From contig NZ_CP061800.1 of assembly GCF_017377395.1 (NCBI RefSeq), forward strand, positions 248,001 through 312,000: a stretch of 64,000 nt of DNA, read 5' to 3'. Shown piece by piece: positions 43,220 through 62,378 of this stretch. This stretch comes from Desulfonema magnum (GTDB taxonomy: Bacteria > Desulfobacterota > Desulfobacteria > Desulfobacterales > 4be13). Under the pieces are notes generated by a model. That model was not told where the DNA came from. It ran no database searches and saw nothing but the letters and a program-made list of their open reading frames with translations. Each line of letters starts with the position of its first letter. Within the stretch, counting starts at the first letter, position 1. The translations under genes and the position numbers were made by a program.

Positions 43220-45766
43220 ATGGGTACTCTGAAAAAACATCTGGCAATTTACTGGGGGATATGTATCACTGTCCTCTTTTTGCTGTTCGGATACGCGGAG
43301 ACAGATTTTTTAGACACATTGGAGCGTAAGTTCTATGATATCAGAATGTCGCTGAGGAGCAATCCGGAAAGCGAAAGCAAGATCATTCTGGTTGATATTG
43401 ACGATGAATCCATAGAAAAAATCGGCAGATGGCCATGGCCTCGGTCACATATTGCCAAATGTCTTGAAATAATAAATCAGGCATCACCAAAAGTCATAGG
43501 ACTCAACATTATTTACAGCGAACCCGAGGACACCCGTGCCTTAAAAGAAATCGGACACTTGGCAGACTATCTGACGCAGATCGATCCGGAACAAACAGAT
43601 AAAAAAATATCCAAGGCGCTTCAGGCTATCAATGACGCGTATTCAAGGCTGGATAACGACAAAAAACTTTCACAGGCCCTTGAACAGGCTGAGAATGTTG
43701 TGCTTCCGGTTTTTTTCAAAGAATCAGAGATATCAAAAGAATTAAAAGATGATAATATCAGAGCCATCCTGGAACATCAGTCTGTTCGAAAGATTGAAAA
43801 TTCCGGTAATCTGACATGCCCCCGGGGGAATGAGATTCTCACGCCCATTCCGGATTTTTTTAAAATTTCAAAGGGAATCGGCCATGTCAATCTTGACTAC
43901 GACATAGACGGAAAGGTAAGATGGGAGCAGCTGTTATATGAATATCAGGGCTTTTATATTCCTTCTTTCACATTGAGACTGGCTGCGATTTCCCTGGATG
44001 TTCCCAGTGATGAGATACATATGTCGCCAGATGCCTCCATTGTCCTTAACTTACTTGAAATCCCTACGGATTCAAGCGCCAGGCTTCTGGTCAGTTTTAA
44101 AGGACCTCAGAATTCTTTTAAACGTTATCCGTTTTACGATGTTGAAAACAATAAAATTCCCCCGAATGTATTCAGAGACAAAATTGTTTTAATCACCCCT
44201 TCTGCCGCAGGTGTATTGAACCCGATCAGCACACCGGCCGCTCAGGTTATGTCTGTGGGAGAGTTCAGCGCCAATGTCATATGGGCAATGCTGAACAGAA
44301 AATTTGTCCTGCGCCCCTCATGGGACAACAGCGCCAGATTTCTGATGATCATCATGCTGGGATTGCTGATTACCTTTATTTTACCCAGATTAAAGGCAGT
44401 CATAGCGGCCATGTCTTTTGTTTTGTTCCTCGTATTTCTCATCACGACATCAACTTATCTTTTTGTATCCCGGGACCTTTGGATTCAGATAACCTACCCG
44501 CTTTTGCAATGGATTGTGGGTTATATCGGCGTTGTCACCATAAAATATTTTGTCACTGAAACCCGTAAGGAAAAAATCGAAACAGAGTCTGCTGAAACCA
44601 ATCGGATGCTGGGGCTTTCTTTTCAGAACCAGGGACAGCTGGACCTGGCTTTTGACAAGTTCCGCAAAGTTCCGGTGGACAATGAGATGAAAAGAATTCT
44701 TTACAACCTGGGACTGGATTATGAAAGAAAACGACAGCTCAACAAAGCAGCCTCGGTTTATGAATATATAGAAGAATATGACAGCGATTACAAAGATGTC
44801 AGCACGAGAAAAAGGAAGCTGGTTCAGGCCAGTGAAACCATGGTATTTGGTGACGGATTTCTGACTGGCGGGACAGGCGGAAATGATTTTCTTACCAGCA
44901 GCAGCGACACCCGCCCCACGCTGGGCAGATACGAAGTCATCAAACAACTGGGAAAAGGGGCCATGGGCGTTGTTTATCTGGGTCAGGACCCGCGCATTAA
45001 CCGAACCACGGCGATTAAGACTTTCCGGTTCAGCGATGACTTTGATCCCAAAGAGGCAGAGGCCATGAAGCAGAAATTCTTTCGGGAGGCAGAAAGCGCC
45101 GGAACCCTTTCCCATCCGAATATTGTCACCATTTATGACGCGGGGGACGAGCATGATCTGGCTTATATTGCCATGGAATTTTTGGAAGGGGAGGATCTCC
45201 AAAAATACACGAAAAAAAAGACGCTGCTGCCCATGCGAAGGGTACTTGATTATGTGGCTGATATTGCAGAAGCTCTGGATTACGCACATGAGAAAGGTAT
45301 TATTCACCGCGATATCAAACCTGCGAACATCATGCTCTTGAAAAATGGCATTGTGAAAATTACCGATTTCGGCATCGCCAGGATCACAGCCAGCTCTCAG
45401 ACGCAGACCGGTGTGGTAAAAGGCACACCTCATTATATGTCCCCGGAACAGATCTCCGGTGAAAAGGTTGACGGACGATCAGATATTTTTTCACTGGGCG
45501 CGATGCTGTTCCAATTGCTCACCGGTGATGTTCCTTTCCACGGCGACAGCCCGGCAGCCCTTTTGCACCAGATAATGAACGTGCCTCATCCGGATCCGAG
45601 AAAACTGAATCCGAAATTATTAAAACCTCATGTGGAAATAATCAATAAAGCTATGGAAAAAAATCGGGAAAAGCGTTATCAGCGGGCCTCCCAGATGGCC
45701 GCTCATCTGAGAACACTGGGGAAAAAAATTGATACGCTTATTATGCAAAAGAAAAAAACAGGGTGA
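43220..45766 (+). CDS. CHASE2-domain transmembrane Ser/Thr protein kinase
   Basis: 848 residues. A first helix (5-25), an extracytoplasmic CHASE2 sensor domain (about 28-365; LERKFYDIRMSLRS, IILVDIDDESIEKIGRWPWP), then three helices (about 370-445; FLMIIMLGLLITFILP, VLFLVFLITTSTYLFV, LLQWIVGYIGVVTIK). A TPR-like segment (about 460-535) leads to a Hanks-type kinase (about 567-840): LGKGAMGVVYLGQD, Lys in TAIKTFRF, HRDIKPANIML (about 695), DFGIA and SPEQISGEKVDGRSDIFSLG. All catalytic residues are present. Heads a signalling cluster with a PP2C phosphatase and an FHA protein. Signal sensed unknown. Confidence 0.93.
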   Translation: MGTLKKHLAIYWGICITVLFLLFGYAETDFLDTLERKFYDIRMSLRSNPESESKIILVDIDDESIEKIGRWPWPRSHIAKCLEIINQASPKVIGLNIIYSEPEDTRALKEIGHLADYLTQIDPEQTDKKISKALQAINDAYSRLDNDKKLSQALEQAENVVLPVFFKESEISKELKDDNIRAILEHQSVRKIENSGNLTCPRGNEILTPIPDFFKISKGIGHVNLDYDIDGKVRWEQLLYEYQGFYIPSFTLRLAAISLDVPSDEIHMSPDASIVLNLLEIPTDSSARLLVSFKGPQNSFKRYPFYDVENNKIPPNVFRDKIVLITPSAAGVLNPISTPAAQVMSVGEFSANVIWAMLNRKFVLRPSWDNSARFLMIIMLGLLITFILPRLKAVIAAMSFVLFLVFLITTSTYLFVSRDLWIQITYPLLQWIVGYIGVVTIKYFVTETRKEKIETESAETNRMLGLSFQNQGQLDLAFDKFRKVPVDNEMKRILYNLGLDYERKRQLNKAASVYEYIEEYDSDYKDVSTRKRKLVQASETMVFGDGFLTGGTGGNDFLTSSSDTRPTLGRYEVIKQLGKGAMGVVYLGQDPRINRTTAIKTFRFSDDFDPKEAEAMKQKFFREAESAGTLSHPNIVTIYDAGDEHDLAYIAMEFLEGEDLQKYTKKKTLLPMRRVLDYVADIAEALDYAHEKGIIHRDIKPANIMLLKNGIVKITDFGIARITASSQTQTGVVKGTPHYMSPEQISGEKVDGRSDIFSLGAMLFQLLTGDVPFHGDSPAALLHQIMNVPHPDPRKLNPKLLKPHVEIINKAMEKNREKRYQRASQMAAHLRTLGKKIDTLIMQKKKTG

Positions 45767-46156
45767 CATTCTGATTTAACCGGCCCGCTTTTAAGAATGA
45801 ATTTGGAGATTGGAAGGTTGGGAATGAAAAATAAATAATATTTATGCCCCTCATGGTCAGCTTCTGTGAATATCCGTGACCAGCAAGTCATAATGATCTT
45901 TGCGAGCTTTAAATGCTATTCCCGTGAAAGCAGGAATCCATGATAGCCTTTATATAAAACCATGAGCCTGTGTGACATTGAAAAGTTCGGGCTACGACAG
46001 GAATATTTTAATTTCCTTGCGATCAAAACATCATACGAGAGGCATGAAATACAGGCTCTCGTCAGAATGGCAGAACTGGTTAAGTGACTCAGATATTAAT
46101 CCTTAGAAATTATAAACCGATTTCTAATTTCCGATTTCAAGAAAGAAGGGATTTCA
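45767..46156. other. intergenic, one tiny doubtful frame
   Basis: Contains decayed palindromic words (ATTCCCGTGAAAGCAGGAAT near 45922). A 41-codon frame at 45962-46087 (starts MSLCDIEKFGLRQEYF, ends MAELVK) has reasonable composition but no ribosome binding site. AAAGAAGGGATTTCA before 46157 serves the phosphatase gene. Confidence 0.3.
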
Positions 46157-46981
46157 ATGGTAATTGTTGAATCGGCAGGTATTACCGATGTAGGCAGAAA
46201 GCGGAAGGGCAACGAAGATTCCTTGTTTATGGACGACGAACTGGCACTTTATGTGGTAGCCGACGGTATGGGAGGACACCAGGCCGGAGAAGTCGCCAGC
46301 AGTCTGGTGGTAGAAACCATGGGAGATTACATGAGGCAGTTCAGGGAAAATCCGGATACGGAAGAACCGGCCAGTGGTGACAATACGTTTTCCAAGGAGG
46401 CCAATCGGCTCATTTCCGGTATCTGTCTGTCAAATGAAGTGGTCCACGACCTTTCCAACAGCAAATCTTCCTATCGGGGCATGGGATCTACGGTTTCGGC
46501 AGTTTGTTTCACCGTTGATGATACTTTCATCGCAAGTAATGTGGGGGACAGCCCGATTTACCTGATTCGAAACGGCGCGATAAAAACCTTATCTGTACCG
46601 CACACTGTTATTGCGGAACATATGGCGCTTCATCCCAACGGACCCAGGCGGTTTGGAAAAGCCTTCAGCCATATGCTCACCCGGGCCATGGGGATTGAAA
46701 AAATAGTAAGGCCTGATACATGTGAGGATCAGTGCTTTAAAAATGATATGCTGGTGATCGCTTCTGACGGCTTAAGCGATAAGGTCAAACCCAAAGAGGT
46801 TCTCTATGTGGTAAAAGACAGATCTCCGGACAAATGCTGTCAGATGCTTGTAGACATGGCCAACGAACGCGGAGGGGAAGATAATATAACCGTTATTGTG
46901 CTAAAGGTGAAAGCAATTAAACATGAAAAAACCGGAATTGCGGGGTTTTTCTCGCGGTTTGTGGACGGAATGAAGGACTGA
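46157..46981 (+). CDS. PP2C-type protein phosphatase (Stp-like)
   Basis: 274-residue cytoplasmic metal-dependent Ser/Thr phosphatase. Motifs in order: RKRKGNEDSLFMDDE (about 14-28), VVADGMGGHQAGEVAS (about 33-48), GMGSTVSAVCF (about 112), NVGDSPIYLIRNG (about 128), ASDGLSDKV (about 202) and GGEDNITVIVLKV (about 237-249). The metal-binding aspartates are all present. It should reverse phosphorylation by the adjacent CHASE2 kinase. Same strand, 390 bases downstream of it, followed by the FHA gene. Confidence 0.93.
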   Translation: MVIVESAGITDVGRKRKGNEDSLFMDDELALYVVADGMGGHQAGEVASSLVVETMGDYMRQFRENPDTEEPASGDNTFSKEANRLISGICLSNEVVHDLSNSKSSYRGMGSTVSAVCFTVDDTFIASNVGDSPIYLIRNGAIKTLSVPHTVIAEHMALHPNGPRRFGKAFSHMLTRAMGIEKIVRPDTCEDQCFKNDMLVIASDGLSDKVKPKEVLYVVKDRSPDKCCQMLVDMANERGGEDNITVIVLKVKAIKHEKTGIAGFFSRFVDGMKD

Positions 46982-47308
46982 TATCTGAATAACATTCCGA
47001 TTTTGATAAATAATTTATCCCATATGGAAATATAGGAACGCCCGGAAGGATAACTTGTTTATACCTCAGTCCTGAGTGCTGACCCCCGTAAACACACCGC
47101 TGGTTATGCTGAGAAGGCGTGCTGAAATGAAAGTGGCACACTTGTATTCAAATGCCGGATGCCTGGTTATAGCGGTCTGTACGGAGTAATCTTAGTATTG
47201 CGTACTACGAGTAAGGAATGATGTGCGCCAGAAGAGGTGCCGCGTGTTGAAGAAACCGTAAACCGCAGCTCGTAACGTGTAACTTGATAAAGAGAGGGAT
47301 TTTTTGCG
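46982..47308. other. intergenic, nothing recognised
   Basis: No frame, hairpin or repeat of note apart from short words like GTATTGCGTACTACG near 47196. GATAAAGAGAGGGA at 47286 is the ribosome binding site for the FHA gene. Confidence 0.35.
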
Positions 47309-48022
47309 ATGCCAACTTTGACACTTAAATTTAAAAAGGATTCAACAAAAATCAGGGAATATAAACTTGAAAGGGGACAGTCTGTCAGCATCGGACGGCT
47401 GGACAGTAACGATATCGTCATTGAAAACCTTGCAGTTTCGGGACACCATGCAAAAATTGACTGGGCAGGCAATGGCTTTTTGCTGACTGATCTGAAAAGC
47501 AAAAATGGTACATTTGTAAATGATCAGCTTGCCATTTCTCATTGGCTCAAGGGTAAGGATGTCATCACCATTGGCAAACATGTCCTTATTTTCGAATATG
47601 CTCAGGGAGAAGTTCAGCCGGATATGGGAGATAAGGCAATGAGCGAAACCATGGTGATGGATACTGGCAAATACCGGTCCATGCTGGCCAAAAATGTTTC
47701 AAATATAGCGGCCCAGGCTGGTGAGACAGAGAAATTAGGGATTTTGTCTTTCCTGTCCGGAGGTGACGGTGAGGTGGAACTCAGCAAGAAGCTGACCAAG
47801 CTGGGAAAAAACGCTTCTTCGGATATTGTGCTGAAAGGCTTTATGGTGGGGCAGACGGCCGCGACCATCAGCAAACGTCCTGACGGCTATTATCTCAGCT
47901 ATGTGGGAGGAATTTCAAAACCAAAGGTGAACGGCAAAGCCGTAAAAGAGTCCGTCAGCCTGAAACAGTTTGATGTCATTGAGATCGGGTCAGCCAAGAT
48001 GCAGTTTATTCATAAAAGCTGA
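47309..48022 (+). CDS. Double FHA-domain protein
   Basis: 237 residues with two forkhead-associated domains, which bind phosphothreonine. FHA 1 (about 20-95): VSIGRLDSNDIVIENLAVSG with the phosphate-contacting Arg, SGHHAKID and SKNGTFVNDQ. Residues 108-145 form a linker containing SETMVMDTGKYR, a possible kinase target. FHA 2 (about 160-235) is divergent: KLGKNASSDIVLKG, TAATISKRPDGYYLSYVGG, PKVNGKAV; the usual RxS...H is altered. Lies between PP2C and VWA-like genes, so it probably reads the kinase's output. Confidence 0.9.
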   Translation: MPTLTLKFKKDSTKIREYKLERGQSVSIGRLDSNDIVIENLAVSGHHAKIDWAGNGFLLTDLKSKNGTFVNDQLAISHWLKGKDVITIGKHVLIFEYAQGEVQPDMGDKAMSETMVMDTGKYRSMLAKNVSNIAAQAGETEKLGILSFLSGGDGEVELSKKLTKLGKNASSDIVLKGFMVGQTAATISKRPDGYYLSYVGGISKPKVNGKAVKESVSLKQFDVIEIGSAKMQFIHKS

Positions 48023-51450: not shown

Positions 51451-52214
51451 TCAGTAGATCGAAAAGTTTCCGGACTGTGCGCGGGATAGCAAAGAAACCC
51501 GGCTTTTTCCCGGACGGGGGTACCTCCCATATGCATCAGGCTAAGAATGAGGGACGGCTGCCGGACGGGGTTTGCAACCCATATGCATCAGGCTAAGAAT
51601 GCGGGACGGCTGCCGGACGGGGTTTGCAACCCCGTCCGAAACGTTTGCGGGCGGCGATCCGGAAAATATTCCGGACGGGGTTGCAAACCCCGTCCTGCAA
51701 AATCAGAGTTAATAAAAACAGTAGGTTGTAATCTTAGCCTGATGCATATGGGTTTGCAACCCCGTCCGAAACGTTTGCGGGCGGCGATCCGGAAAATATT
51801 CCGGACGGGGTTGCAAACCCCGTCCTGCAAAATCAGAGTTAATAAAAACAGTAGGTTGTAATCTTAGCCTGATGCATATGGGTTTGCAACCCCGTCCGAA
51901 ACGTTTGCGGGCGGCGATCCGGAAAATATTCCGGACGGGGTTGCAAACCCCGTCCTGCAAAAAAAGGGGCACCTCCCCGCCGGAAAAAGCCGGGTTTCTC
52001 CCCATATGCATCAGGCTAAGATCGTAACTCATTGTTTTTATTAATCCGTGATCTGCCGGACGGGGTTTGCAACCCCGTCCGAAATATTTTCCGACCCCCG
52101 AAAACAAACGTTTCGGACGGGGTTGCAAACCCCGTCCGGCATTCTTAGCCTGATGCATATGGGGTTTCTCCCCCGTCCGTCCTGTGACGGCCCGAAAACT
52201 TTTCGATCTACTGA
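51451..52214. mobile_element. 764-bp composite palindromic island with 130-bp tandem repeats
   Basis: Bounded by TCAGTAGATCGAAAAGTTTC (51451) and AACTTTTCGATCTACTGA (52214), with AGG on both sides (51448-51450, 52215-52217). Inside: a 130-bp unit repeated at 51621, 51751 and, for 80 bases, 51881, each with the stem GGTTTGCAACCCCGTCCG / CGGACGGGGTTGCAAACC; an inverted variant at 52054-52140; ATATGCATCAGGCTAAGA in both orientations; and the GAAACCCGG core near 51494 and 51985. Repeat-derived frames are not real genes. Confidence 0.8.
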
Positions 52215-54800: not shown

Positions 54801-54891
54801 GGTAGTCCTGCACAAGTAGTGATGAATGAGATTCAGTGTCCTGACAACCGGGGAACTGAACGGGATTCATCACTACCTTTGCAGGACTACC
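54801..54891. repeat. inverted repeat upstream of the first channel gene
   Basis: GGTAGTCCTGCACAAGTAGT and GATGAAT (54801-54826) face ATTCATCACTACCTTTGCAG and GACTACC (54866-54891). It lies immediately before the channel gene start at 54916, could form a strong hairpin in the leader, and overlaps an in-frame upstream ATG at 54826. Confidence 0.6.
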
Positions 54892-54915: not shown

Positions 54916-57051
54916 ATGAAAAAAACATTACTGATCATTCTTTCATCCTTTATTATATCTGGTCTGATTATTATTTTTTTCTTATGGTTCTCAGATTCCG
55001 CTTTCAGAAAAGAAGAAATTTATATTGCCGCGGCCGTCCCTCTGAGCGGAAATCACCGTTCAGAAGGTCGTGCAATGCTGAACGGGATTAAGCTGTATCT
55101 GGACAAAGTAAATCACACAGGGGGAATCAACGGAAGAAAGATAAAATTACTTATTTTTAATGATAAAAATCAGATCAGCGCCGCCATAGACGCTGCTTCA
55201 GATATTACAGAGAATGATAAGATACTGCTTGTGCTGGGACATTTTAGCAGTCCCACCTGTCTTGCAGTGGGAAGAATTTATAAAAAAAGCGGCATACCTG
55301 CCATAACCGCATCAGCCACAGCCGAAGATGTTACATTGGCAAACGGTTTATATTTCAGAATAATATCAGGCAACCGCTTTCAGGGAAATTTTATTGCCAC
55401 CTATATCAGCAAATCTTTATATAAAAAATCCGCATGCATTATATTCAGCAAGGACAGATATGGAACTGAACTTGCTGAATATTTTGAAAAAAAAGCCTGT
55501 GATTTGGGAATCAGGATAAAAGGGAAATGGGGCTTTGACGCGAAAAACGGTCATCTGAATAAGGGACTGAATAAAATTATTAACAGCTTAAGAGCCATAA
55601 AAAATCCGGGAATAATCTTTGTCGCGGCCCAGGGTGACGAAGGAGCCAGGATTGTCACCACATTAAAACATGCAGGAGCGAATTACGCCATTATCGGTTC
55701 GGATGCGTTTGCGACAGATGCGTTTACTCAGCGAATCCTTAAATATCCCCAGGAACAGGCGGTCCCCGGACATTTTTCAGATGGCATTTATACGGTATCT
55801 CCGTTCTTAGCTGATATTGCCAACAAAGAAGCTCAGGTTTTCAGACAGGAATTTCTGGATAAATACAATGAGGAACCTTCATGGGTGGCAGCCTGCTATT
55901 ATGATGCCGCACATGTTGCTGTTGAAGCTGTCAGACAATCCAAAAATCGGGAAAATGAGAATATACGAAAGTACCGGAGACAAATCAGAGAACACCTGGA
56001 AAATATGTCTGATCCTGAATATAACTCGGTAAAAGGCATAACCGGAAATATATTTTTTGATAAAAACAGAAATGCTAAGAATTCGCTGTCTGTGGGAATC
56101 TATAAAAAGAATAAGCTGCTTCCGGCATTTTCACAATATCGGCAACTCTTATCTGATGACAGCTCAGATCATAATATTCCCAAAGGTCCTGGTGATGAGA
56201 GCGCAATGATTGTCATTGACGAAAAAGTGATGGTAAAAACCCAGATCGTTTACACGGGAATTGATATTAACGAAATCAGCAAGTTAGATATGAAACGATT
56301 TCGTTGTACCATAGATTTCTACCTCTGGTTTCGTTTTCAGAAGGACTTTGATGATTCCAATATCGTTTTTGTGAATGCAGTGAATCCCATTAAACTGGGT
56401 AAGCCTGTCATGGAGGAGATAATAAGAAATGTCACGATTCGGACATATCGTGTGAAAGCTGATTTTAAAAGTAATTTTAATTTTTATACTTATCCTTTTG
56501 AATGTCAGGTGATACCTGTCAGGTTCCGCCATATTTCCCGGGTCGGAAGCACCCTGTGTTACGTTGCCGATGTTCCGGGATTGCCGTATCTGTACAAAAA
56601 AAATGTCAGAAAAAAAGAGATAAATGCGCTGACTGGCTGGAATATCAGCGAAATATGGGTTTATCAGAATATGATTACCCCTTCTGTTGATGACTCAGAT
56701 GCTTATGATCCTCAGAATCCGATTTCTTATTCTCAGTTCAATGCTGCCATCCGAATAAAAAAACAGGGCATGGATGCTGCTTTAAAAATTTGTTTTCCTT
56801 TTTTTATTATCACTGTGATATTATTTTTAGTTTACTTTGTGCCATCCGACAGAATTGAAATTAAGATATCAATGCTCATGGGTGTTCTGACAACAACTGC
56901 CATTTATCACTCGGAGATCAGATCAGATATACCAGCAGAACATATATTAGCGATTGAATATGCTTTTTTTACAATATACGGAGCAGCAGCAATATTTACC
57001 ATAATATCCCTGATGACTTACAAGCAGCAAAAACAGAGAACCGCTTTATGA
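54916..57051 (+). CDS. Periplasmic binding protein fused to a pentameric ligand-gated ion channel, copy 1 (no M4)
   Basis: 711 residues from ATG 54916 (an in-frame ATG at 54826 lies inside an inverted repeat). Signal/anchor helix (3-22), a LivK-type binding domain (about 33-410; IYIAAAVPLSGNHRSEGRAM, GGINGRKIKLLIFNDKNQ, GHFSSPTCLAVGRIYKKSGI, ITASATAEDVTLANGLYFRI), then a Cys-loop-receptor-like module: beta-sandwich (about 435-605) with FYLWFRFQKDF and YPFECQ at 526 in place of the FPFDxQ loop, pre-M1 SQFNAAIRIKK, M1 (620-645), M2 (647-668, IKISMLMGVLTTTAIYHSEI then SDIP) and M3 (674-702). The protein ends nine residues after M3; helix M4 is missing. Predicted ligand-gated channel of the inner membrane. 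Confidence 0.85.
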   Translation: MKKTLLIILSSFIISGLIIIFFLWFSDSAFRKEEIYIAAAVPLSGNHRSEGRAMLNGIKLYLDKVNHTGGINGRKIKLLIFNDKNQISAAIDAASDITENDKILLVLGHFSSPTCLAVGRIYKKSGIPAITASATAEDVTLANGLYFRIISGNRFQGNFIATYISKSLYKKSACIIFSKDRYGTELAEYFEKKACDLGIRIKGKWGFDAKNGHLNKGLNKIINSLRAIKNPGIIFVAAQGDEGARIVTTLKHAGANYAIIGSDAFATDAFTQRILKYPQEQAVPGHFSDGIYTVSPFLADIANKEAQVFRQEFLDKYNEEPSWVAACYYDAAHVAVEAVRQSKNRENENIRKYRRQIREHLENMSDPEYNSVKGITGNIFFDKNRNAKNSLSVGIYKKNKLLPAFSQYRQLLSDDSSDHNIPKGPGDESAMIVIDEKVMVKTQIVYTGIDINEISKLDMKRFRCTIDFYLWFRFQKDFDDSNIVFVNAVNPIKLGKPVMEEIIRNVTIRTYRVKADFKSNFNFYTYPFECQVIPVRFRHISRVGSTLCYVADVPGLPYLYKKNVRKKEINALTGWNISEIWVYQNMITPSVDDSDAYDPQNPISYSQFNAAIRIKKQGMDAALKICFPFFIITVILFLVYFVPSDRIEIKISMLMGVLTTTAIYHSEIRSDIPAEHILAIEYAFFTIYGAAAIFTIISLMTYKQQKQRTAL

Positions 57052-59351
57052 AAAAAAATCTGCTCATACATCTGCTGTTCATATCTGTCTGTCTGATTGT
57101 GTTCTCTCTGTCGTATATCGTCCCCCGTCTGAAAAAAGAAATTATTTATATTGCGCTTGCAGGACCGATGAGCGGCTCTTATAAAAAATGGGGACAGGAA
57201 ATGTTAAAAGGAAGCCTTCTGTATCTCGATAAAATTCGTAACCAAGGCGGAGGGCCTGAAAACAAAAAAATAGAACTGATTATAACAGACGATCATCGAG
57301 ATGAGCGTACCGCGATAAGAGAGGCTGTCAAACTTGTATCTGAAAACAAGGCATTACTCGTACTCGGACATTCAAGCAGTCCCATTTCAGTTGCCGCGGG
57401 AAACATTTATAAAAAAGGCAAAATACCCGCGATCACCGCATCTGCCACTGCTGAAAGCGTCACCCTTGAAAATGAATGGTATTTCAGAATCATACCCAAC
57501 AACACCATTCAGGCGAATTTTATCGCACATTATATTAGCAGGGCATTAAACGCGACATCGGTAAGCCTCATCTTTGATCAGGACAGTTACGGTGCTTCTC
57601 TTGCAAAAAGTTTTGAAACAGCGGCCAGGGAACTGGGAATCAGTATCAGCATAAAACAGGGATTTGATATAAAAGATCCATATTTGAATAAAGAACTGGC
57701 ACATATTGCAAAGAAAATAGCCGCCACAAATGATCCGGGAATGATATTTTTGGCAACCCACGGGGCCGAAGGGGTCAAACTTGTCAAATTATTAAAAGAT
57801 GAAAATCCGGACACAGCATATTCCATTATCGGTCCTGACTCATTTTCTGCCCGGTCGTTTGTCGAAAGATTCAGTAAATATCCCCGGGAACAGTCATCTC
57901 CCGGACACTATTCAGATGGTATCTATGCAGCATCTCCCTATCTGATGGATATCGGCACTGAAAAAACCTATAATTTCAAACAAGAGTATATTGATAAATA
58001 TAATGAAGCGCCTTCATGGATCGCAGCGTGTTATTATGACGCAATGTATGCTGCCGTCGAGGCCATTAAAAAAGCTGACATTCGGAGCAATAAAAATATA
58101 GCAAATAATCGGAAAAAAATAAGAGATGCTTTGGCAAATTTCCGCACCAACAAACATGCCATCAGAGGCATTACCGGGAATATTTGCTTTAATGCGAATG
58201 GCGATATTGAAAGACCTTATGCAATGGGTTTTTATGATAAGCAACAATTTCGGACTTCGTTTTTTCAATATCAGCAGCCAACCACCTCAAAACCTATTGA
58301 TAAAATTATCAAAAAAATGCTGACAGGTGAATTGATCTCAATTAACGGAAAAATTATGAACAGGGTCCGTGTGGTATATACAGGTATTCACATTAATGAG
58401 GTGAGCAACATACGCGTGAAAAACTCCGGTTATACCATAGATTTTTACCTCTGGTTCCGTTTTCAGGACGATTTTAATGATGCTGATATTGAATTTATAA
58501 ATCTTGTGATTCCGGATAAAAAGGATTCGGACAGCGAACTTGCGGATCTGCTGGATGATCAGCCGATTGTGGATCAGCCGATTATGGAGGAGGTAAAAAA
58601 CGATGTTATCACCCGGGTATATCGTATAAAGGCTGATTTTAAAGCAGAATTTGATTTTCATGATTATCCCTTTGACCATCATATGATCGGTATCAGATTC
58701 CGTCATACTGACCAGACAAGAGATAAACTTATTTATATTCCGGATGAATGGGGAATGCCTCAGTCCTTGGCTCGTTTCATTCCCCGGTTCCGGAGTGAAG
58801 GCAACAAACGAAAAATACCGGTGAGACCTGTCCCCGGATGGAATATAGGGAATGACATATCATTTTACGAGAACAGCATCAGCACAATGTCCACGCTTGG
58901 CAACCCGATCTTTTTTGATGTGCAAAATATAATTACGTTTTCTCAGTTCAACGCGGCCATCCGAATTGAAAGAAAAGGGCTGAATCTGATAAAAAACTTT
59001 GTCCCAATGATCATCATGGCAGTTGTTTTGTGCCTGACCTGCCTTGTTCCGCCGAACCGGCTCGGAACCCGTGTACTGTCCTTTATGCTTATACTGATAT
59101 CAAATGCCGTCTGCCATCGGATACTTTTATCAGGATTACCAGTGGAATATTTACTGACTGTGGAATACGGACTTTTTGCCATGTATTTATTCGTGACGTT
59201 CTCCGTGGGAATATCAATCTTCCTTTATATTCGACACAAACAAGGGCGGGCAATAACATTCCTCAGTTATGCGGAAAAAGTTTTTCATCCTTTTGTTGTT
59301 CTCATTGTTGCCGCATATTTTTATTTTAAATATTTTTCTTTAAAATTATGA
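57048..59351 (+). CDS. Periplasmic binding protein fused to a pentameric ligand-gated ion channel, copy 2 (complete)
   Basis: 767 residues, ATGA overlap with copy 1. N-terminal anchor (3-22, no clear cleavage site), LivK-type domain (about 33-415; IYIALAGPMSGSYKKWGQEM, GHSSSPISVAAGNIYKKGKI, SYGASLAKSFETAARELGIS), then the channel: VYTGIHINEV (about 443), FYLWFRFQDDFNDADIEF, YPFDHH at 540-545 (Pro-loop motif), pre-M1 FSQFNAAIRIERKG, M1 (about 648-668), M2 (about 672-693, RVLSFMLILISNAVCHRILL then GLP), M3 (699-725) and M4 (747-765, FHPFVVLIVAAYFYFKYF). Binding of a small ligand by the attached domain may gate or tune the pore; ligand and ion selectivity are unknown. Confidence 0.88.
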   Translation: MKKNLLIHLLFISVCLIVFSLSYIVPRLKKEIIYIALAGPMSGSYKKWGQEMLKGSLLYLDKIRNQGGGPENKKIELIITDDHRDERTAIREAVKLVSENKALLVLGHSSSPISVAAGNIYKKGKIPAITASATAESVTLENEWYFRIIPNNTIQANFIAHYISRALNATSVSLIFDQDSYGASLAKSFETAARELGISISIKQGFDIKDPYLNKELAHIAKKIAATNDPGMIFLATHGAEGVKLVKLLKDENPDTAYSIIGPDSFSARSFVERFSKYPREQSSPGHYSDGIYAASPYLMDIGTEKTYNFKQEYIDKYNEAPSWIAACYYDAMYAAVEAIKKADIRSNKNIANNRKKIRDALANFRTNKHAIRGITGNICFNANGDIERPYAMGFYDKQQFRTSFFQYQQPTTSKPIDKIIKKMLTGELISINGKIMNRVRVVYTGIHINEVSNIRVKNSGYTIDFYLWFRFQDDFNDADIEFINLVIPDKKDSDSELADLLDDQPIVDQPIMEEVKNDVITRVYRIKADFKAEFDFHDYPFDHHMIGIRFRHTDQTRDKLIYIPDEWGMPQSLARFIPRFRSEGNKRKIPVRPVPGWNIGNDISFYENSISTMSTLGNPIFFDVQNIITFSQFNAAIRIERKGLNLIKNFVPMIIMAVVLCLTCLVPPNRLGTRVLSFMLILISNAVCHRILLSGLPVEYLLTVEYGLFAMYLFVTFSVGISIFLYIRHKQGRAITFLSYAEKVFHPFVVLIVAAYFYFKYFSLKL

Positions 59352-59472: not shown

Positions 59473-60423
59473 ATGGAATTAAAAAATATTTTCATGGTGT
59501 TGTTTTTGGCGCTGACATTGAGCCTCATGGGATATCCTGCCATGGCAAGTGAAAGCATTTATATTATTTCTCACGCCGGAGCAGGTGATCCCTTCTGGAA
59601 GGTCGAATTTAAAGGAGCCAGAGCAGCAGCTAATGAAACAGGAGCGACGCTGACGATCCTGGCACCGGAAACACCCAATGACATTGCACAGGAGGCAGAA
59701 CTGCTTAACTCAGCAATCAGGACCAGACCTGCCGGTATTGCCGTAACCATTCCTGATGCAGACAAGTTTTCAGATGCTCTGAAATCAGCCCGTAACAAAG
59801 GCATTCCCGTTATTGCATTTAATGTCCGCCCTGATGACAATGACCGTGTAAAAAATCCTTATCTTGCTTATATCGGCATGGAGGAATATCTGGCCGGCAA
59901 AGTTGCAGGCCAACATGCGTTTCTTTCAGGTAAGATTAACAAACGAGTTGTGGTTATAAACCATCAGACAGGCCATATGGGACTGGAGGCACGATTTAAA
60001 GGAATCTGTGATATCCTTTCATCAAAGGAAATTATTGTGGATAAACTGGATACAAACACTGATCCCCGGAGACTTTTAAAAGATACGCTTGAATATCTTA
60101 AAAAACATAGCGAGGTCAGCGCTGTTTTTTGTCTGGGCCCTTCCTCTTTGCATTTTATCGGAAAACTAATCAAAAAGAAAAAGCTTGATCTTTATTTGTG
60201 CAGCTTTGATATCTCTTCGGATACTTTGAATTTTATCAAACAAGGCGTGGCGGATTTTACGATTGACCAGCAGCCTTATATGCAGGGCTATTTGTCCGTA
60301 AATTTGCTGATACTGGCAGCCCGCTTCAAGATGAGCCCGCCGGATATCAACACCGGGGTCGGAATTATAGACCGCTCCAATGTTGAGGCTGTTGAAAATT
60401 TTGCAAAACAAAATATTCGGTAA
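59473..60423 (+). CDS. Sugar-type periplasmic binding protein (RbsB family)
   Basis: 316 residues. Signal peptide (LFLALTLSLMGYPAMAS, about 10-26), then a Peripla_BP_4 fold: IYIISHAGAGDPFWKVEFKG (about 29-48), ETPNDIAQEAELLNSAIRTR, GIAVTIPDADKFSDALKSAR, GIPVIAFNVRPDD, GMEEYLAGKVAGQHAF, and the hinge-side FTIDQQPYMQGYLSVNLLIL (about 269-288). It belongs with ribose/AI-2-type binding proteins. No permease or ATPase gene is nearby, so it may feed a receptor or channel rather than an ABC importer. Follows the channel pair after a short palindromic element. Confidence 0.88.
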   Translation: MELKNIFMVLFLALTLSLMGYPAMASESIYIISHAGAGDPFWKVEFKGARAAANETGATLTILAPETPNDIAQEAELLNSAIRTRPAGIAVTIPDADKFSDALKSARNKGIPVIAFNVRPDDNDRVKNPYLAYIGMEEYLAGKVAGQHAFLSGKINKRVVVINHQTGHMGLEARFKGICDILSSKEIIVDKLDTNTDPRRLLKDTLEYLKKHSEVSAVFCLGPSSLHFIGKLIKKKKLDLYLCSFDISSDTLNFIKQGVADFTIDQQPYMQGYLSVNLLILAARFKMSPPDINTGVGIIDRSNVEAVENFAKQNIR

Positions 60424-61414: not shown

Positions 61415-61452
61415 TAAAAAAACAGGCCGCTTTTTTTCAGGCAGCCCGTTTT
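61415..61452 (-). terminator. minus-strand terminator overlapping GEMM-like aptamer 4
   Basis: Minus strand CGGGCTGC and GCGGCCTG (two G-U pairs) form a stem around CCTGAAAAAA-type loop, followed by seven T. The 5' arm is also the 3' strand of the aptamer, so the two folds would compete. Confidence 0.55.
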
Positions 61453-61514
61453 TTTTGAGACTCATGGCTTTCCGTCTTCACCTTACGGTGAATCTGACTT
61501 TATAAAGACAAAGC
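61438..61514 (-). ncRNA. GEMM-like aptamer 4, degenerate, downstream of the PEP-CTERM gene
   Basis: Minus strand: CACC-GTAA-GGTG hairpin with a GNRA loop, then ACGGAAAGCC, GTCTC and GGGCTGCC, in the order of a class I (GEMM) aptamer. The 5' AAACC element is poorly kept (AAAGTCAGATTCACC). Confidence 0.4.
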
Positions 61515-61541: not shown

Positions 61542-62114
61542 TTACTTCAAAAACTTTCTCCTGATTCCTGCAAGACTGACCAAGCCGGAACCAAGCAGCC
61601 AGACTGCCCCGGGAATGGGAACAGGGGCCACGTTTTTAGCAATGATCACCATATCATTATGATCCGTATCCCAACCCGGCTGAGTCAGGTCTTCTATGTT
61701 CAGCCTGAATTTATATTCATTGTTCTCATTTTGGAAAATTTTGAAATGGTCGTATCCGTCGCCGTTCATAGATTGGTCACTGTAGTATGTCATTCCGCCA
61801 TTTTCGGGTGTTGAAATATAAAAGCCAAAAGCATCATCTGACATAGGCTCCCATTCCACATCTGGCGGATAATCCGGCCCGCTGAACAGCTGAACAGCAT
61901 CCTGCTCCTGCCCTTTATAGTAATAGCCAAAGCTGTTCTCATCGGCAAAAGCGGCATCTTCCAGTATGAGCTTGAATTGCACTTTGTCCGCACCAGGAGC
62001 CATTGTAAAATATCCCGGGTCCTCAATCTCTGTCCACGTTGCTGCCATCACACTCCCGGTCAGCAGAAAAATACCCAAAACAGAAAATACAAATAATGTT
62101 ATAATTTTTTTCAT
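61542..62114 (-). CDS. PEP-CTERM-type exported protein with DUF4114-like domain
   Basis: 190 residues. Signal peptide (FVFSVLGIFLLTGSVMAA, about 8-25), a beta-rich domain with the DUF4114-like ending FRLNIEDLTQPGWDTDHNDM (about 136-155), then a sorting tail VPIPGAVWLLGSGL (about 165-178) plus a basic end IRRKFLK. The VPxPGAxWLLGSGL tail is the Desulfobacterota form of PEP-CTERM, recognised by exosortase and linked to surface or biofilm-matrix proteins. AAAAAAGGAGAAACATATC precedes the ATG. Its leader carries two or three GEMM-like aptamers, so expression is probably set by a cyclic dinucleotide. Confidence 0.85.
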   Translation of the reverse strand: MKKIITLFVFSVLGIFLLTGSVMAATWTEIEDPGYFTMAPGADKVQFKLILEDAAFADENSFGYYYKGQEQDAVQLFSGPDYPPDVEWEPMSDDAFGFYISTPENGGMTYYSDQSMNGDGYDHFKIFQNENNEYKFRLNIEDLTQPGWDTDHNDMVIIAKNVAPVPIPGAVWLLGSGLVSLAGIRRKFLK

Positions 62115-62199
62115 GATATGTTTCTCCTTTTTTTTACCTAAGACTAAAAATCAAAAACCAAACGCCTTTTCATTCCATTTTCAACTTTTCATTTTCATT

Positions 62200-62275
62200 T
62201 TAGGTAACCCGGCTGTCTCTCATTCAAGACCCGTGGCTTTCCGTCCCCACTTCGCAATGGGTTTGGCTTTGTCTG
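62200..62275 (-). ncRNA. GEMM-I-type cyclic dinucleotide riboswitch aptamer 3
   Basis: Minus strand: AAAGCCAAACC, P2 hairpin CCCATT-GCGA-AGTGGG with GNRA loop, GGGGACGGAAAGCC, ACGGGTCTTG, then GAGACAGCCGGGTTACCT. Order and sequence match the GEMM-I consensus. The base equivalent to position 20 of the Vc2 aptamer is A. Lies 86 bases before the PEP-CTERM gene start. Confidence 0.72.
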
Positions 62276-62303
62276 GTTATTTTTCCCCACCTCCTTTCTT
62301 TGT

Positions 62304-62378
62304 CTTAGGCGGCCCGGCTGTCTCACTGAGACCCGCGGCTTTCCGTCCCCGCCTCACGACGGGTTTGGCTCTTTTCTG
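62304..62378 (-). ncRNA. GEMM-I-type cyclic dinucleotide riboswitch aptamer 2
   Basis: Minus strand: AAAAGAGCCAAACC, P2 hairpin CCCGTC-GTGA-GGCGGG with GNRA loop, GGGGACGGAAAGCC, GCGGGTCTCA, then GAGACAGCCGGGCCGCCTAA. The position equivalent to Vc2 residue 20 is A (AGAGC against AGGGC). Arranged in tandem with aptamer 3, 28 bases apart. Confidence 0.72.

What the first reader, a model, noticed from the sequence alone, without database searches (positions are those of the whole stretch)
54916..59351. Tandem genes fusing LivK-type binding proteins to pentameric ligand-gated ion channels
Both proteins have an N-terminal anchor, a complete type I periplasmic binding protein (about 380 residues) and a Cys-loop-type channel module with the YPF(E/D)xx loop, SQFNAAIRI pre-M1 and M1-M3 helices. 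The combination is analogous in plan to animal glutamate receptors (binding-protein domain on a channel) but uses the pentameric channel fold. Bacterial pentameric channels with extra N-terminal domains are known (for example DeCLIC, from memory). A tandem pair built on full amino-acid-type binding proteins is unusual and could be a chemosensory or nutrient-gated ion channel system.
Basis: partly seen in the sequence, partly recalled or inferred. Interest (0 to 1): 0.93.

Follow-up and report, generated by a model that had tools for sequence, protein, structure and literature searches.

The report
Paired binding-protein-headed receptor channel genes
Two overlapping bacterial genes encode relatives of animal nerve-receptor channels that carry an amino-acid-type binding protein on top, one of them without the usual fourth membrane helix, and they likely assemble into one mixed ion channel that a small molecule outside the cell would open.

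Summary
Genes 54916-57051 and 57048-59351 overlap by ATGA. [quoted passage not shown] A profile of 23 family members matches solved pLGICs (ELIC 5e-15, GLIC 6e-13). Binding-protein/pLGIC fusion was published in 2004 (PMC549065), so the architecture is not new.

What seems new: (1) gene 1 ends after M3 without M4; so do 5 of 30 subunits in 15 gene pairs, never both members. (2) Ten of the 15 pairs sit behind an SPFH gene and a double-binding-protein gene; the window pair does not. (3) The same head also occurs, in this genome and elsewhere, on an unrelated pore, MscS, often with a cyclic-nucleotide domain. The heads match at E 5.6e-50, and the Pro-loop proline is kept in 36 of 37 pLGIC-pore rows and 0 of 40 MscS-pore rows.

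Best reading: a heteromeric, nutrient-gated pLGIC. Homology is firm; assembly, ligand and conduction are inferred. Verdict: new variant of a known kind, with a striking pore swap in relatives.

The parts
54916..57051 (+). gene 1 (711 aa): anchor, PBP-I, pLGIC extracellular domain, M1-M3, no M4
54919..55002 (+). gene 1 N-terminal membrane anchor (residues 2-29)
   Evidence: helix in AF2 model; hydropathy
55009..56145 (+). gene 1 LivJ/LivK-type periplasmic binding protein domain (residues 32-410)
56206..56763 (+). gene 1 pLGIC extracellular domain (residues 431-616)
   Evidence: strands; profile matches to solved pLGICs
56491..56502 (+). gene 1 Pro-loop YPFE (residues 526-529)
   Evidence: proline in 36 of 37 rows
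56770..56832 (+). gene 1 M1
56854..56928 (+). gene 1 M2, pore helix with E at -2', S at 2', T at 9'
   Evidence: prime numbering assigned by me from recall
56935..57045 (+). gene 1 M3, running to the C terminus
57048..57051 (+). ATGA stop/start overlap of the two genes
57048..59351 (+). gene 2 (767 aa): anchor, PBP-I, pLGIC extracellular domain, M1-M4
57144..58226 (+). gene 2 periplasmic binding protein domain (residues 33-393)
   Evidence: Peripla_BP_6 6.8e-36
58320..58967 (+). gene 2 pLGIC extracellular domain (bounds by alignment)
   Evidence: alignments A3 and A5
58974..59336 (+). gene 2 M1-M4 region
   Evidence: hydropathy; alignment
59262..59336 (+). gene 2 M4
59473..60423 (+). stand-alone sugar-type binding protein gene, same strand, 121 bases downstream; possible co-transcribed partner (inference)
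   Evidence: Peripla_BP_4 5.8e-40

Best explanation
The two genes encode homologues of pentameric ligand-gated ion channel subunits headed by LivJ/LivK-type binding proteins, and they likely work together as a mixed channel that a periplasmic amino-acid-like nutrient would open. Proposed steps (all inferred): five anchored subunits of both kinds form a ring; ligand closes the binding-protein clamshells; the movement passes through the pLGIC extracellular domain and its Pro-loop to the M2-M3 region; the pore opens and changes membrane potential or ion content. Gene 1 would supply a polar pore lining (E-2', S2', G6', T9') and gene 2 a hydrophobic one (L2', L6', I9') plus the M4 helices that gene 1 lacks. 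Shown here: domains, homology, overlap, missing M4, recurrence of pairs. Not shown: assembly, ligand, conduction, selectivity, biological role.
For: Binding protein. pLGIC homology: nAChR 2.5e-6; ELIC 4.6e-15, GLIC 5.7e-13. Fold order of gene 1. Pro-loop proline in 36 of 37 rows and a basic pre-M1 residue in 36 of 37. Pairing: of 50 distinct canonical genes with a complete 3' end, 28 are in same-strand tandem and 2 more form a pair split by one gene. M4 is missing in 5 of those 30 and never in both members of a pair. Amino-acid-pocket-like positions in the family alignment: S112 (35 of 37), A134 (35), Y182 (34), D or E at 263 (30), all four kept in both window proteins; their role in LivJ is recalled. 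Six first-position genes from all five family genomes group at 91/92 support. All five genomes of the family have canonical matches.
Against: Neither protein alone hits Pfam Neur_chan models. The position tree is mixed: first and second genes need 4 label changes (shuffled mean 7.1, 7 of 500 as low); two pairs look like in-locus duplicates, the window pair is unresolved, and three of the 12 rows I labelled 'first' are lone genes behind the double binding protein. M4 loss is not significantly tied to paired genes (5 of 30 against 1 of 20, Fisher p 0.38; the one solo case has a 31-residue hydrophobic-looking tail and may have M4). In this genome's other paralogues the pocket-like positions are not all kept: position 263 is Y or N in two, position 182 is R or F in two others. 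No expression data were seen. The structure comparison tested only the binding-protein part.
Confidence: 0.55

Rival explanations
1. Each gene makes its own homopentameric ligand-gated channel, and the tandem is only a recent or conserved duplication. The M4-less gene 1 would assemble from M1-M3 alone.
For: 20 of 50 distinct canonical genes are solo in the DNA held, so homomers are probably possible in the family; the members of two tandem pairs group with each other (L022 at 91/87, L083 at 98/100).
Against: Overlapping start/stop, recurrent pairing in 15 loci, partial old split of first and second subunits, never both members without M4; M4 is reported as important for pLGIC assembly (PMC9116227, abstract passage).
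Confidence: 0.25
2. Gene 1 is a decaying or regulatory subunit: it lost M4, no longer conducts by itself, and acts as a dominant modifier or is on the way to becoming a pseudogene.
For: M4 absent; T at 9' where 33 of 37 rows have L, I, M or F.
Against: 711-codon intact frame that keeps the Pro-loop, pre-M1 and pocket-like positions; M4-less subunits recur in four other pairs; the stop overlaps the next start exactly.
Confidence: 0.12
3. A receptor head without channel function: ligand sensing by the binding protein and pLGIC extracellular domain signals through partner proteins such as the SPFH protein or an MscS-type channel.
For: Related operons carry SPFH, double-binding-protein and some MscS/MscK-like genes; the same head is fused to MscS.
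Against: The window pair has no such neighbours among the flanking genes examined; the pLGIC transmembrane region is kept and the family profile aligns to solved channels as far as M4.
Confidence: 0.08

Closest known systems
Prokaryotic pLGICs fused to PBP-I, described by Tasneem et al. 2004 in Magnetospirillum and Bradyrhizobium (PMC549065)
   Same: N-terminal PBP-I followed by the pLGIC extracellular domain and channel; proposed chemoreceptors for small solutes; stand-alone binding-protein neighbours also noted there (passages)
   Different: Those authors inferred homopentamers because most genomes had one gene. Here there are eight head-bearing genes in one genome, an overlapping pair, a three-helix subunit, and MscS-pore relatives
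GLIC and ELIC
   Same: Extracellular domain plus channel; sequence profile matches
   Different: No binding-protein domain, no N-terminal anchor, homopentamers with M4 (recalled)
DeCLIC (PMC12664993, PMC9897478)
   Same: Bacterial pLGIC with an extra N-terminal domain, from a sulfate-reducing deltaproteobacterium
   Different: Its N-terminal domain is two jelly-roll lobes, not a binding protein; [quoted passage not shown]
LivJ/LivK branched-chain amino acid binding proteins
   Different: Here membrane-anchored (predicted) and fused to a channel; no ABC transporter gene among the flanking ORFs scanned
Animal ionotropic glutamate receptors
   Same: Binding-protein fold on a ligand-gated channel (analogy only)
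   Different: Different pore family; in NMDA-type receptors the pore is inserted into a PBP-II domain (PMC549065, passage); four-fold symmetry (recalled)
MscS superfamily channels with a cyclic-nucleotide domain (bCNG; name recalled)
   Same: The pore-swap relative P0130 carries the MscS beta-domain and cNMP_binding
   Different: P0130 and its kin add a PBP-I domain and a pLGIC extracellular domain upstream; no paper on this was found in search listings 29, 50, 77, 87

Membership tests
pLGIC (Pro-loop receptor) superfamily | sequence homology to solved pLGICs over extracellular and transmembrane domains | tested here: met
   23-row family profile including both window proteins: ELIC 4.6e-15, GLIC 5.7e-13, GLIC match over positions 56-315 of 317
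pLGIC (Pro-loop receptor) superfamily | conserved Pro-loop proline (PMC4795631 abstract: the only absolutely conserved residue of the motif's family) | tested here: met
   YPFE in gene 1, YPFD in gene 2; 36 of 37 rows
pLGIC (Pro-loop receptor) superfamily | beta-sandwich extracellular domain then helical transmembrane domain | tested here: met
   gene 1 model, secondary structure only; gene 2 not modelled, aligned only
pLGIC (Pro-loop receptor) superfamily | fold match of the channel part to solved pLGICs by structure comparison | tested here: inconclusive
   the match lists were filled by the binding-protein domain
pLGIC (Pro-loop receptor) superfamily | four transmembrane helices M1-M4 | tested here: not met
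   gene 1 has M1-M3 only; gene 2 has M4. Gene 2 is filed as a member, gene 1 as a three-helix homologue
pLGIC (Pro-loop receptor) superfamily | five-fold assembly around a conducting pore | not testable with these tools
   no multimer prediction or electrophysiology available
Cys-loop receptors in the strict sense | disulfide cysteine pair flanking the Pro-loop | tested here: not met
   no such pair in either sequence (read)
PBP-I / LivJ-LivK binding proteins | Peripla_BP_6 domain and fold | tested here: met
PBP-I / LivJ-LivK binding proteins | amino-acid binding | not testable with these tools
   pocket-like positions conserved but no binding test
ionotropic glutamate receptors | inverted potassium-channel-type pore in a PBP-II domain (recalled) | tested here: not met
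   pore is pLGIC-type by homology
MscS pore-swap relatives (P0130, P0131; not the window pair) | pLGIC extracellular domain homologous to that of the window pair | tested here: met
   hhalign probability 100, E 5.6e-50 over 222 columns, ending about the end of M1
MscS pore-swap relatives (P0130, P0131; not the window pair) | MscS pore domain | tested here: met
   MS_channel_2nd 4.3e-19 and 2.1e-13

The most novel reading that the evidence does not exclude
One receptor head, a binding-protein clamshell stacked on a pLGIC extracellular domain, is a portable ligand sensor that evolution has set on two unrelated ion pores, the pentameric pLGIC pore and the MscS pore (with a cyclic-nucleotide switch). 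In this window it drives an obligate heteromeric channel in which a natural three-helix subunit borrows stability from a four-helix partner. The loss of the Pro-loop proline exactly where the pLGIC pore is gone marks that loop as the pore-specific coupling part.
Probability: 0.45. Interest if true: 0.88.

Novelty: new variant of a known kind. Interest (0 to 1): 0.7.

Why it matters
pLGICs are textbook drug targets, and how their extracellular domain opens the pore is a long-standing question. A family in which nature removed M4 from one subunit of a pair gives a direct test of whether M4 is needed in every subunit. Relatives in which the same head sits on MscS give a natural domain-swap experiment: residues kept with both pores would serve sensing, residues kept only with the pLGIC pore would serve coupling. 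It also poses a symmetry puzzle, since pLGICs are pentameric and MscS is heptameric (recalled). If ligand gating is shown, it would be a bacterial counterpart of amino-acid receptors built on a pentameric channel.

Tried and rejected
Pfam alone: no Neur_chan hit for either window protein, so family profiles were used instead.

Rejected: 'the fusion is new' (published 2004); 'M4 loss is a database truncation': one relative, P0016, is indeed cut short (its tail continues into an M4 in the full gene), but the window gene, L021, L093, L102 and L103 cases end at real stops inside longer DNA; 'chimeras are common in the phylum': of 395 genomes 63 had a match at 1e-20, but only the own genome had one spanning head and MscS (only about four candidates a genome were scored, so this is a lower bound), though in the family 4 of 5 genomes have one. 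Position-specific ancient subunits: only partly supported. M4 loss as a mark of paired genes: not significant. Ion selectivity from M2: not decided; gene 1 has E at -2' like GLIC (recalled), gene 2 has G.

Rows dropped: 12 rows were duplicates of the same gene from two sources (11 canonical, 1 chimera) and 3 ran off a contig end at their 3' side; genes open only at the 5' side were kept; L131 gave no row. A1 used 37 and A2 used 40 proteins chosen by me from the listed hits plus in-genome genes; both lists are capped samples. One search reports 667 proteins (from 7,992 scored candidates), of which the best 120 were listed; one search reports 139, best 120 listed; one search reports 262 PDB sequences, best 60 shown.

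Full report

Channel module. Single-sequence Pfam gives nothing for the C-terminal halves. A profile from the six canonical modules of this genome matches nAChR beta at 2.5e-6 and GLIC at 5e-4. A profile of 23 modules from the five family genomes matches a GABA-A chimera at 8e-18, ELIC at 4.6e-15 and GLIC at 5.7e-13; 262 distinct PDB sequences pass E 0.01, and the 60 shown are pLGICs or pLGIC chimeras. AlphaFold2 of gene 1 with 37 rows gave pLDDT 83.8, pTM 0.80: anchor helix, clamshell, ten strands, three helices. The Pro-loop proline is kept in 36 of 37 rows and a basic residue before M1 in 36 of 37.

M4. The hydrophobic part of M3 ends at residue 702 and gene 1 stops at 711; gene 2 has M4. 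Among 50 distinct canonical genes with a complete 3' end, 6 lack M4 by the profile cut-off: 5 of 30 in 15 pairs (window gene 1; L021, L093, L102 and L103 second genes) and 1 of 20 solo genes, which still has a hydrophobic-looking tail. No pair lacks it twice. The difference between paired and solo genes is not significant (Fisher p 0.38). P0027 also lacks M4 in the alignment, context unknown.

Family and context. Phylum sample: 13 of 395 genomes match the channel profile at 1e-5, several with open frames too short to hold a binding protein; family: 5 of 5. Named holders include Desulfobacterales, Beggiatoaceae such as Parabeggiatoa, Halobeggiatoa and Thioploca, SAR324, cyanobacteria and Anaerolineae. 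In 14 distinct loci, covering all five family genomes, the order is an SPFH (Band_7) gene, a protein with PBP-I plus SBP_bac_5, then one or two canonical genes; two loci were checked by Pfam and the rest by BLAST to them. Ten of the 15 pairs have both upstream genes, two more (L083, L107) only the double binding protein, one (L088) is cut off by its contig, and the window and the cyanobacterial L113 pairs have neither. Upstream of the window pair is a PGAP1-like lipase gene, downstream a stand-alone Peripla_BP_4 protein. MscS-type genes turn up in some clusters: an MscK-like gene between the two subunits in L021, an SBP_bac_5-MscS fusion in L097, and a head-MscS-cNMP chimera downstream of a single canonical gene in L129.

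Pore swap. Two proteins of the same genome (P0130 and P0131) carry an N-terminal hydrophobic segment, PBP-I and the pLGIC extracellular domain, then an MscS pore; P0130 also has a cNMP-binding domain. The canonical and chimera profiles match with probability 100 and E 5.6e-50 over 222 columns, and the match stops about the end of M1. The predicted strands of P0130's extracellular domain fall at nearly the same residues as in gene 1. A search with P0130 residues 420-960 gave 667 hits; all 120 listed carry the MscS domain, and most also PBP-I and cNMP annotation. At the aligned position the Pro-loop proline is present in 0 of 40 chimeras against 36 of 37 canonical rows. The basic pre-M1 residue is also relaxed in chimeras (K16, P11, E7, R5, S1 of 40, against R31, K5, E1 of 37). 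The simplest reading is that these positions couple the head to the pLGIC pore and are released when that pore is replaced (inference).

Subunit logic. M2 of gene 1 is polar at the pore positions (E-2', S2', G6', T9'), while gene 2 has G-2', L2', L6', I9' (numbering recalled). Thirty-three of 37 rows have L, I, M or F at 9'; only gene 1 has T. Together with the missing M4, the overlap and recurrent pairing, this favours a mixed channel. The tree gives moderate support: six first-position genes group (91/92), label changes 4 against 7.1 shuffled, 7 of 500 as low; but the members of two pairs group with each other, the window pair is unresolved, and three of the 12 rows labelled first are lone genes. 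The pocket-like positions S112, A134, Y182 and D263 are kept in both window proteins but not in all four other paralogues (Y or N at 263, R or F at 182).

Literature. Tasneem et al. 2004 (PMC549065; outline and eleven passages) reported PBP-I fusion, operons with binding proteins and a chemoreceptor proposal, and expected homopentamers. Jaiteh et al. 2016 (PMC4795631; abstract, and a term search without hits). DeCLIC papers PMC12664993 and PMC9897478 (passages). PMC9116227 (three passages). All other papers were seen only as search listings. For the pLGIC-head/MscS fusion I found no paper in listings 29, 50, 77 and 87, and for natural M4-less subunits none in listings 67 and 78; the library is open-access only and omits most subscription journals.

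Verdict. The pore swap in relatives is the most surprising part. Shown: sequence, homology, predicted fold, context. Inferred: assembly, ligand, gating, role.

Noticed in passing
L023:2878-6324 (-), L024:5537-8809 (+): Proteins with PBP-I and pLGIC extracellular domain on an MscS pore, one with a cNMP-binding domain; many relatives in the protein database.
   Followed up: yes
L097:961-3843 (+): SBP_bac_5 binding protein fused to an MscS pore, next to a stand-alone MscS gene and a PBP-pLGIC gene.
   Followed up: partly
window 54801-54891: Strong hairpin (z -7.8) just upstream of gene 1, repeated at 40 or more places in the genome (78 matches counting both strands, 40 of 88 candidates scored); probably a mobile hairpin repeat.
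   Followed up: partly
window 51526-52180: Cluster of direct and inverted repeats with a CCGGACGGGGTTTGCAACCCCGTCCG-like core (nine 37-nt copies, three 130-nt copies); the peptide DGVCNPVRN read from it also appears upstream of a PBP-pLGIC gene in another genome (L085).
   Followed up: partly
window 61437-61508, 62199-62276, 62304-62378 (-): Three c-di-GMP-I riboswitches by Rfam, two in tandem upstream of gene 61542-62114 and one downstream of it; that gene's C terminus looks like a PEP-CTERM-type sorting signal (recalled).
   Followed up: no
window 43220-48022 (+): CHASE2 protein kinase, PP2C phosphatase and FHA genes in a row: likely a Ser/Thr phosphorylation signalling cluster.
   Followed up: no
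loci: Many named holders of the canonical family are filamentous or multicellular bacteria (Beggiatoaceae, Thioploca, cyanobacteria; Magnetomorum); their life-style is recalled, and the pattern may only reflect genome size or sampling.
   Followed up: no
P0052, P0067, L108:7714-11280: pLGIC modules followed by a C-terminal SBP_bac_1 binding protein, so a binding protein at each end of the channel in P0052 and L108; L111 and L115 are of similar length but were not scanned.
   Followed up: partly
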